Origin: Candidatus Moraniibacteriota bacterium
GTDB taxonomy: Bacteria; Patescibacteriota; Minisyncoccia; Moranbacterales; UBA1568
Length of the DNA: 58,506 nucleotides
Assembly: GCA_028711705.1 (NCBI GenBank)
Contig: JAQTRS010000008.1
Span: forward strand, 1-58,506
Reading direction: 5' to 3'
Positions within the stretch are counted from its first letter, which is position 1, and each line of letters starts with the position of its first letter. The notes beneath the pieces are model-generated. The model did not search any database, was not told the origin of the DNA, and saw nothing but the letters and a program-made list of their open reading frames with translations. A program made the translations under genes and the position numbers. Positions 1-972 of this stretch are shown here, in pieces.

Positions 1-104
1 TCAGTTCGGATCGGAGTCTGCAACTCGACTCCGTGAAGTTGGAATCACTAGTAATCGTTGATCAGCCACGCAACGGTGAATACGTTCTCGGATCTTGTAC
101 TCAC
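1..104 (+). rRNA. rrs: 16S rRNA, 5' exon (partial, 3' region of the gene)
   Basis: The sequence matches the bacterial 16S region around E. coli 1290-1399, with recognisable stretches such as GGAGTCTGCAACTCGACTCC, CTAGTAATCG and GGTGAATACGTTC. The match runs to CTTGTACTCAC at 104 and then breaks off. The continuation expected in 16S (CGCCCGTCACACC) resumes only at 973, so the gene is interrupted by an intron after the base equivalent to about E. coli C1399. The 5' part of the gene lies outside the window. Confidence 0.96.
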
Positions 105-260
105 AATAAAAGCGCCGGGCAGTTTATGTATCTAGAGAGTTTGAATCTCTCCCTTTGATTCGTCATCAAAGCGTAGTCGACAGGTAGTCGTATACCGCGA
201 GGTGTACGGTGAAGGATCTGAAGACAAAATACAGCCTTACACAACAAACAGTCGCATCGA

Positions 261-286
261 TTTCCGAACCGGGTGGTGAGCGGAAA
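261..286 (+). other. Putative EBS1 hairpin of the 16S intron
   Basis: TTTCCG (261-266) pairs perfectly with CGGAAA (281-286). The 14-nt loop ends in GTGAG (276-280), the exact complement of CTCAC at 100-104, the last bases of the 5' exon. In group II introns the first EBS1 base pairs with exon base -1, which holds here (G276 with C104). The base just before EBS1, G275, could also pair with the first base of the 3' exon, C973, as in the delta-delta' contact of subgroup IIA. Confidence 0.55.
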
Positions 287-471
287 GAAGATGCCAAGAA
301 AAACTGGTAAGGATGTATGGAACAGAGATATAAATGACCCCGGGAGATCTGGCGTTGTTCTATCGGTATGTTATAATACTGATAGATAATGAAACTTACG
401 CAGCGTCAGAAGTCAGCTGAACCATAGTAACCTCCGATTCACATCGGAATGAAGGGTTCACTCAAGCGCAT

Positions 472-906
472 ATGGAAAAGATAACCCCAGATTATATAGT
501 CGGTCTTGTGGATGGCGAAGGGAGTTTTACAGTCTATGTAAAAGATCCCGATAGCCAAAAGCAGGTCAAGCGACGGACAAAAGTTGAGCCGAGGTTTTAT
601 GTCAAATTCATCGAGAAAGATAAAAAGATTCTCTATGATTTGAAAGAATTCTTCGGTTGCGGAAACGTATACTTCCAAAAGGATACGCGACCCAATCATC
701 AGCATTGTTATCGCTATGAAGTAGCCAATCGATATGATCTCGGAACCATTATCATTCCATTCTTCAGAAAGAATTCTTTGAGGTTACAGTCAAAGAAGGG
801 TGACTTTGAAGTTTTTTGCAGAATTTTTGAAATGATTATGAAAAATGATCACCTCAAGACTTCGGGTTTGCGAAGGATATTCGCACTCAAGCAAAAAATG
901 CATTGA
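472..906 (+). CDS. LAGLIDADG homing endonuclease, intron-encoded
   Basis: A 144-aa protein with one LAGLIDADG motif near the N-terminus (IVGLVDGEGSF, residues 9-19), the helix that forms the dimer interface and supplies the catalytic acid. Single-motif enzymes of this size act as homodimers that cut a long, nearly palindromic site, normally the intronless allele, and some also act as maturases that help splicing. The fold fits LAGLIDADG_1 (FYVKFIEKDKKILYDLKEFFG is typical of the strand-helix after the motif; only the first part is quoted by family resemblance). The ORF lies wholly inside the 16S intron and stops at TGA 904-906, touching the putative domain V. No Shine-Dalgarno precedes the ATG. 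The frame is intact, so the enzyme may be functional. Confidence 0.9.
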   Translation: MEKITPDYIVGLVDGEGSFTVYVKDPDSQKQVKRRTKVEPRFYVKFIEKDKKILYDLKEFFGCGNVYFQKDTRPNHQHCYRYEVANRYDLGTIIIPFFRKNSLRLQSKKGDFEVFCRIFEMIMKNDHLKTSGLRRIFALKQKMH

Positions 907-907
907 G

Positions 908-972
908 CTCGTCGTGTGCGGGAAATCCGCAGGCACGATGGGAATATCAATTCGTAGTTTTACGAAGATAAT
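908..972 (+). other. Domain V-like and domain VI-like hairpins at the intron 3' end
   Basis: 908-916 pairs with 934-942 (9 bp, two of them G-U), followed by a 2-nt bulge GG (932-933) on the 3' side, then a 5-bp upper stem (917-921 with 927-931) and a GAAAT loop. The 9 + 2-nt bulge + 5 layout is that of group II domain V, with one extra loop base. The AGC at 906-908 sits at the base but lacks its usual GUU partners. Next comes TATC-AA-TTCGTA / TACGAA-GATA (945-970), in the place of domain VI, then the terminal AT. This hairpin has no bulged A on its 3' side, so a normal lariat branch point is not visible. Confidence 0.45.

What the first reader, a model, noticed from the sequence alone, without database searches (positions are those of the whole stretch)
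105..972. 16S rRNA intron that looks like a group II ribozyme but encodes a LAGLIDADG endonuclease
The insert follows about C1399 of 16S, at the decoding centre. It shows an EBS1 hairpin whose loop GTGAG matches the exon end CTCAC, a 9+5-bp hairpin with a 2-nt 3' bulge like domain V, and an AT end, yet its only ORF is a LAGLIDADG protein normally found in group I introns. LAGLIDADG ORFs in group II introns are known chiefly from fungal mitochondrial rRNA genes. A bacterial example would suggest that the combination arose more than once or moved between domains.
Basis: partly seen in the sequence, partly recalled or inferred. Interest (0 to 1): 0.82.

Follow-up and report, generated by a model that had tools for sequence, protein, structure and literature searches.

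The report
Group II intron with LAGLIDADG endonuclease
The only detected 16S ribosomal RNA gene of this tiny uncultured bacterium is interrupted at the decoding centre by a probably self-removing group II RNA that carries a DNA-cutting gene normally found in group I introns; the combination was already reported in these bacteria in 2024, but this copy belongs to a sub-lineage with an altered catalytic core.

Summary
Window 105-972 is an 868-nt insertion between C1399 and C1400 (E. coli numbering) of the genome's only detected 16S gene. Thirteen relatives of the same family carry exactly the joined sequence. The insert is a group II intron: a family alignment gives 61 of 88 domain I-III pairs with compensatory changes and a fully paired, covarying domain V. 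The base 5' of EBS1 covaries perfectly with exon nucleotide 1400 in 54 introns (A-U 9/9, G-C 45/45; one origin rejected, p=0.0008). Its ORF, in domain IV, is a single-motif LAGLIDADG endonuclease under purifying selection. No group I hit was found. New here: the family occurs in 56 of 384 sampled class genomes, in at least three subtypes offset by 1-2 nt; the window's sub-lineage has catalytic triad CGU with an AG bulge instead of AGC/CGC with AY, a concerted change at the third catalytic base triple; the 5' end is AAUAAAAGCG and the branch-point A is missing; ten relatives carry insertions inside domain V. Splicing itself is untested.

The parts
1..104 (+). 3' part of the 16S rRNA 5' exon (window starts inside the gene)
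   Evidence: Rfam RF00177; upstream part lies on contig C1, whose last 127 nt equal window 1-127
100..104 (+). IBS1, CUCAC (16S nt 1395-1399)
   Evidence: pairs with GUGAG 276-280; conserved in relatives
105..972 (+). group II intron, 868 nt
   Evidence: empty site in 13 relatives; covariation
105..114 (+). non-canonical 5' end AAUAAAAGCG (5' linker; GCG kept from GUGYG, inferred)
   Evidence: nearly invariant across the close family
105..343 (+). domain I; closing helix 115-119/339-343
   Evidence: RNAalifold, compensatory changes; weak Rfam group-II-D1D4-3 hit 191-333
261..286 (+). domain ID hairpin bearing the exon-binding loop
   Evidence: conserved stem with double changes
275..280 (+). 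G275 next to EBS1 (pairs with exon nt C973 = C1400) and EBS1 GUGAG 276-280
   Evidence: nt 275 covaries with nt 1400 in 54 of 54 typed introns; single origin rejected
344..414 (+). domain II (approximate limits)
   Evidence: RNAalifold helix
415..462 (+). domain III, with the conserved GUCAGAAGUCAGC...CAUAGUA...GAAGG motif running from the end of DII
   Evidence: Rfam group-II-D1D4-1 380-457, 30.8 bits, cut-off 35; sister introns 36-52 bits
472..906 (+). LAGLIDADG homing endonuclease ORF, 144 aa, in domain IV; its stop codon ends just before domain V
   Evidence: PF00961 65.1 bits; PDB I-SmaMI 2.5e-28; dN/dS 0.09-0.20 against relatives
908..942 (+). domain V; triad C910-G911-U912, partner A938, bulge A931-G932
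   Evidence: 100% of cells paired in 14 relatives; register fixed by the RF00029 alignment of relative L088
946..969 (+). domain VI hairpin without a bulged A on its 3' strand
   Evidence: covarying helix
973..1110 (+). 16S rRNA 3' exon, from C1400; end approximate (anti-Shine-Dalgarno CACCTCCTTTCT near 1097-1108)
   Evidence: sequence; joined site in relatives

Best explanation
The insertion is a group II intron (ribozyme scaffold closest to bacterial group IIC, derived) that must be removed from the 16S precursor. EBS1 (276-280) pairs with the last five bases of the 5' exon, and the base next to it pairs with the first base of the 3' exon, which fixes both splice sites. Domain V supplies the catalytic core. 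Because GUGYG is replaced by AAUAAAAGCG and domain VI lacks its bulged A, the first step is probably hydrolysis or branching at an unusual place (inferred). The intron spreads as DNA: its endonuclease, probably a homodimer, cuts intronless 16S genes at the insertion site and repair copies the intron in (inferred from the family). In the window's sub-lineage the third catalytic base triple has changed from C-G plus bulge pyrimidine to U-A plus bulge G.
For: Exact empty sites in 13 relatives. 61 of 88 DI-DIII pairs have compensatory changes. DV 100% paired with double changes; DV-DVI covariation score 0.418 against 0.135 in shuffles. nt 275: exon 1400 covariation 54 of 54, single origin rejected p=0.0008. 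Rfam group II hits in the window below cut-off, in sisters above cut-off, and the DV-DVI model on L088. LHE hits and purifying selection. Only one 16S copy detected and it carries the intron. Patchy distribution: 10 of 131 order genomes, 56 of 384 class genomes. A related CPR rRNA-intron LHE, I-ShaI, was shown by others to cut its insertion-site DNA and to form dimers (PMC11270868). The LHE tree places group II LHEs in clades apart from the sampled 23S LHEs.
Against: No transcript or splicing data. The window's own DV is not recognised by Rfam even at E of 10. Triad CGU and bulge AG depart from the AGC/CGC and AY rules (PMC4424553). DVI lacks the bulged A. The triple switch may be a single historical event (AU p=0.215), so its compensatory nature rests on few independent changes. 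The sequence comes from a draft assembly whose contigs meet inside the intron.
Confidence: 0.86

Rival explanations
1. It is a degenerate group II intron that no longer self-splices and depends on a protein in trans (its own LHE acting as maturase, a host helicase or another factor).
For: Below Rfam cut-off; altered triad, bulge, 5' end and branch site; relatives have domain V insertions.
Against: No recognised maturase domain in the genome's two reverse transcriptase loci (one beside a bAvd gene, DGR-like); ORF-less members keep the same RNA structure; DV is strongly conserved; according to PMC4424553 the Leptographium LHE did not promote splicing of its intron.
Confidence: 0.3
2. It is an intervening sequence that is cut out by RNases without ligation, or stays in the rRNA.
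For: CPR 23S genes probably contain short IVS of that kind (PMC11270868); no splicing data exist here.
Against: Insertion between nt 1399 and 1400 lies in the decoding centre, where retention or a break should be lethal; intron-exon covariation at nt 1400 has no reason to exist without exon recognition; group II covariation.
Confidence: 0.06
3. It is a group I intron with a LAGLIDADG gene, the usual combination.
For: The LHE family is common in group I introns (PMC11270868).
Against: No group I family hit up to E of 5; the conserved structure is group II in domain order and motifs; the 5' exon ends in C and the intron in U, against the group I rule of U before the 5' site and G at the intron end.
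Confidence: 0.02

Closest known systems
CPR 16IS9 group II-like insertion sequences with LHE (Tsurumaki et al. 2024, PMC11270868)
   Same: Same gene, same site (reported as position 1400), same clade of bacteria, group II-like RNA without RT, LAGLIDADG_1 ORF in most.
   Different: That study identified them with Rfam models and gave no detailed structure in the sections read; the window's copy falls below the Rfam cut-off, so it may have been counted as unclassified there (inferred). Triad switch, registers, nt-1400 covariation and DV insertions are not in the main-text sections read.
rns-1396 IIC-LHE family of Thiotrichaceae (Salman 2012; Liu 2026, PMC13190283)
   Same: 16S decoding-site insertion within a few nt, single-motif LHE in domain IV, 5' terminal linker, no EBS2 reported.
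   Different: Site differs by about 1-3 nt; described as exclusive to four Thiotrichaceae genera; word searches for CPR and Patescibacteria found nothing in that paper. Its sequences could not be compared here.
Fungal and green-algal mitochondrial IIB1/IIB2/IIA1 group II-LHE introns (Toor and Zimmerly 2002; Li 2011; Liu 2026)
   Same: LHE replaces RT; 5'-terminal extra nucleotides with loss of the branch point in several.
   Different: Other insertion sites and RNA subclasses; mostly double-motif LHEs.
I-SmaMI and the LAGLIDADG_1 family of fungal mitochondria
   Same: Same fold family, PDB best hit 2.5e-28.
   Different: Two-domain monomer; the window protein has a single motif and should act as a homodimer.

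Membership tests
Group II intron | Six-domain secondary structure with domain V hairpin and 2-nt bulge | tested here: met
   covarying DI-DIII and DV-DVI; DIV holds the ORF. DV has a 4-bp upper helix with a 5-nt loop.
Group II intron | Catalytic triad AGC or CGC and AY bulge | tested here: not met
   Window: CGU and AG. Most relatives: CGC with C or U at the second bulge position. The pair is kept (U-A) and changes together with the bulge. Hence filed as a variant.
Group II intron | 5' end GUGYG | tested here: not met
   AAUAAAAGCG, conserved in the close family; 5' linkers are known in LHE group II introns (PMC13190283).
Group II intron | 3' end AY and bulged branch A in DVI | tested here: inconclusive
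   Ends AAU (AY met); no bulged A on the 3' strand of DVI in window or close relatives, as in other group II-LHE introns (PMC13190283).
Group II intron | EBS1-IBS1 and 3' exon pairing | tested here: met
   GUGAG/CUCAC; neighbouring base covaries with nt 1400, 54 of 54.
Group II intron | Rfam group II model above cut-off | tested here: not met
   30.8 bits against 35 for RF01998; no RF00029 hit. Sister type C introns reach 36-52 bits.
Group II intron | Splicing by two transesterifications | not testable with these tools
   Needs RNA.
Group IIC subclass | IIC domain ID, linkers and EBS3-IBS3 | tested here: inconclusive
   Resemblance to bacterial IIC is from memory; the nt-1400 contact looks like delta-delta' (base next to EBS1). 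No subclass phylogeny was run.
LAGLIDADG_1 homing endonuclease | Pfam PF00961 domain and LAGLIDADG motif with catalytic acid | tested here: met
   65.1 bits, cut-off 23.1; motif YIVGLVDGEGS in the sequence.
LAGLIDADG_1 homing endonuclease | Cuts the intronless site | not testable with these tools
   Shown elsewhere for I-ShaI of another CPR rRNA insertion (PMC11270868).
Group I intron | P3-P7 core, Rfam group I hit | tested here: not met
   No hit to E of 5. No positive control: the two 23S LHE loci checked gave no group I hit at cut-off either.

The most novel reading that the evidence does not exclude
A bacterial lineage of group II introns works with a catalytic core in which the third base triple (bulge nt with the third triad pair) has been exchanged as a unit, from pyrimidine plus C-G to G plus U-A, and whose relatives repeatedly tolerate hairpin insertions inside domain V next to the catalytic wobble pair. 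This would show that the domain V core, thought nearly invariant from group II introns to U6 snRNA, can be rewired in nature.
Probability: 0.5. Interest if true: 0.75.

Novelty: new variant of a known kind. Interest (0 to 1): 0.52.

Why it matters
[quoted passage not shown] It gives a natural series for testing how an intron keeps exon recognition while shifting its splice sites by one nucleotide. It also offers natural variants of the catalytic triad, bulge and domain V architecture, which are usually treated as invariant and are compared with the spliceosome.

Tried and rejected
Group I intron: no Rfam hit and a wrong end signature. Archaeal bulge-helix-bulge intron: not tested with a dedicated model; set aside because covariation supports group II throughout. 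That A1396U comes from the intron: rejected, intronless relatives also have U1396. Viral carriers: no relative in viral contigs. A maturase in trans: two RT loci found, neither with a maturase domain in Pfam. Independent origins of the triad switch: single origin not rejected (p=0.215). A first multi-locus Rfam run failed. RF00029 on the window's DV alone: no hit. The planned group I positive control on 23S LHE loci L018 and L020 gave no intron hit at cut-off.

Full report
What is there. The window begins inside a 16S rRNA gene of a bacterium whose relatives are Patescibacteria/CPR of the Parcubacteria kind; a same-family genome, G016, matches a Ca. Moraniibacteriota record, L021. The gene is interrupted at 105-972. 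The joined sequence TTGTACTCACCGCCCGTC is present uninterrupted in 13 of 28 genomes of the same family and absent from the window's own genome. The boundary is therefore C1399|C1400 in E. coli numbering, and U1396 is a trait of the hosts, not of the intron. One 16S copy was found. Its upstream part lies on contig C1, which ends with the same 127 nt that open the window and so runs into the intron as well. The intron is thus in the only 16S gene detected.

RNA evidence. Rfam gives two weak group II hits in the right order, group-II-D1D4-3 at 191-333 (18.6 bits) and group-II-D1D4-1 at 380-457 (30.8 bits, cut-off 35), and no group I hit. Relatives were collected by protein, pattern and covariance-model searches. 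A 15-sequence alignment of the 5' half folds into a group II-like DI-DIII arrangement with 61 of 88 pairs showing compensatory changes. For the 3' half, a named DV-DVI structure has 94.7% of cells paired (79.8% in shuffles) and 12 pairs changed on both sides; DV alone is 100% paired. The register of DV is fixed by the Rfam RF00029 alignment of a relative, L088 (29.2 bits, below its cut-off of 40).

Exon recognition. EBS1 GUGAG (276-280) pairs with exon CUCAC (100-104). The base 5' of EBS1 is G in 45 of 45 introns whose hosts have C1400 and A in 9 of 9 whose hosts have U1400 (Fisher 1.9e-10, ignoring relatedness; one further type B intron, L076, could not be typed). The tree needs three changes, and a single origin is rejected (AU p=0.0008). 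This repeated intron-exon covariation is the strongest sign that the RNA recognises and rejoins its exons.

Subtypes. At least three insertion registers exist: type A, CUCAC|AAUAAAAGCGC...GAUAAU|CGCCC (window); type B, CUCA|AAAUUAAAGCGC...GCAAU|CCGCCC; type C, CUC|GGGUCGC...CUCAAU|ACCGCCC. Type C introns pass the Rfam cut-off (36-52 bits) and look canonical, with a domain V of the ACCGC type. Types A and B have a longer, altered 5' end, and close relatives of the window lack a bulged A on the 3' strand of domain VI. The same combination of 5' extra nucleotides and branch-point loss is described for mitochondrial group II-LHE introns (PMC4424553, PMC13190283).

Catalytic core. Known group II introns have triad AGC or CGC and an AY bulge (PMC4424553). 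Among 27 distinct domain V sequences extracted here, 25 have the third triad pair C-G with C (22) or U (3) at the second bulge position; two, shared by the window's clade, the f15 clade and L072, have U-A with G. From general knowledge of the O. iheyensis structure, these bases form the third catalytic triple, so the change looks concerted. A single origin is not rejected (p=0.215), so the number of independent switches may be one.

Domain V insertions. Ten relatives (L023, L031, L086, L087, L089, L090, L091, L099, L102, L105) carry about 45 to 110 extra nt, usually foldable as two adjacent hairpins, in the 3' strand of domain V at or next to the partner of the triad G. At least five changes are needed on the tree for the eight included. 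The window's intron does not have it.

Protein. ORF 472-906 is LAGLIDADG_1 (65.1 bits), nearest in PDB to I-SmaMI (2.5e-28), with one motif, so it should act as a homodimer. dN/dS against relatives is 0.09-0.20 (dS is high, so values are rough). In the LHE tree, type C proteins form one clade, most A and B proteins another, and three B proteins group with C; the sampled 23S rRNA LHEs lie outside these clades. Two LHE lineages therefore ride this RNA. Fungal I-SmaMI domains are long branches and do not settle any transfer between domains.

Mobility and distribution. The intron is patchy: 10 of 131 genomes of the order by domain V pattern and 56 of 384 sampled genomes of the class by covariance model (weaker hits include types B and C). 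Some introns lack a detectable LHE. Together with empty sites in sister genomes, this fits DNA-level homing. No maturase gene was found; the genome has two RT loci, one beside a bAvd gene as in diversity-generating retroelements.

Against the literature. Tsurumaki et al. 2024 (PMC11270868) found 53 group II-like insertions in CPR 16S genes, concentrated at position 1400, 39 with LHE and none with RT. That is this kind of element. Liu et al. 2026 (PMC13190283) list only the Thiotrichaceae rns-1396 family for bacteria; CPR and Patescibacteria were not found in its text by word search. The present data, like the 2024 paper, contradict the claim that bacterial representatives are exclusive to Thiotrichaceae. 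The 2024 paper was read in part only; supplements were not available.

Verdict. Real, correctly read as group II plus LAGLIDADG, not the first bacterial example. What is new is the detail: the concerted change at triad and bulge, nt-1400 covariation, shifting registers and domain V insertions. Splicing and homing of this copy are inferred, not shown.

Noticed in passing
L023, L031, L086, L087, L089, L090, L091, L099, L102, L105 (domain V regions): Ten relatives have 45-110 nt, mostly two adjacent hairpins, inserted in the 3' strand of domain V at the triad; recurrent on the tree (at least five changes).
   Followed up: partly
L092-L103 type C loci and L009: A second, more canonical group II-LHE lineage sits 2 nt upstream (C1397|A1398), with a separate LHE clade; possibly the CPR counterpart of Thiotrichaceae rns-1396.
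   Followed up: partly
Exon nt 1400 in L026, L062, L064-L066, L069, L072, L089, L091, L098: Several hosts (families f15 and f201 among them) have U at 16S position 1400, a decoding-centre base that is nearly always C; introns of several lineages adapt to it.
   Followed up: partly
L110, end of contig C1 (16S, around E. coli nt 1130): Helix 39 region of the same 16S gene is enlarged by roughly 170 nt.
   Followed up: no
window 1-127 and end of contig C1: Two contigs overlap by exactly 127 nt and break 23 nt into the intron, suggesting an assembly branch, perhaps strain variation in the intron.
   Followed up: no
L033 (Actinomycetota, high G+C contig): A related LAGLIDADG ORF (38% identical) interrupts what looks like a 23S rRNA gene in an actinobacterial bin.
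   Followed up: no
L108, L109 (G000 contig C21): A reverse transcriptase frame with one stop codon beside a bAvd gene, as in a diversity-generating retroelement.
   Followed up: no
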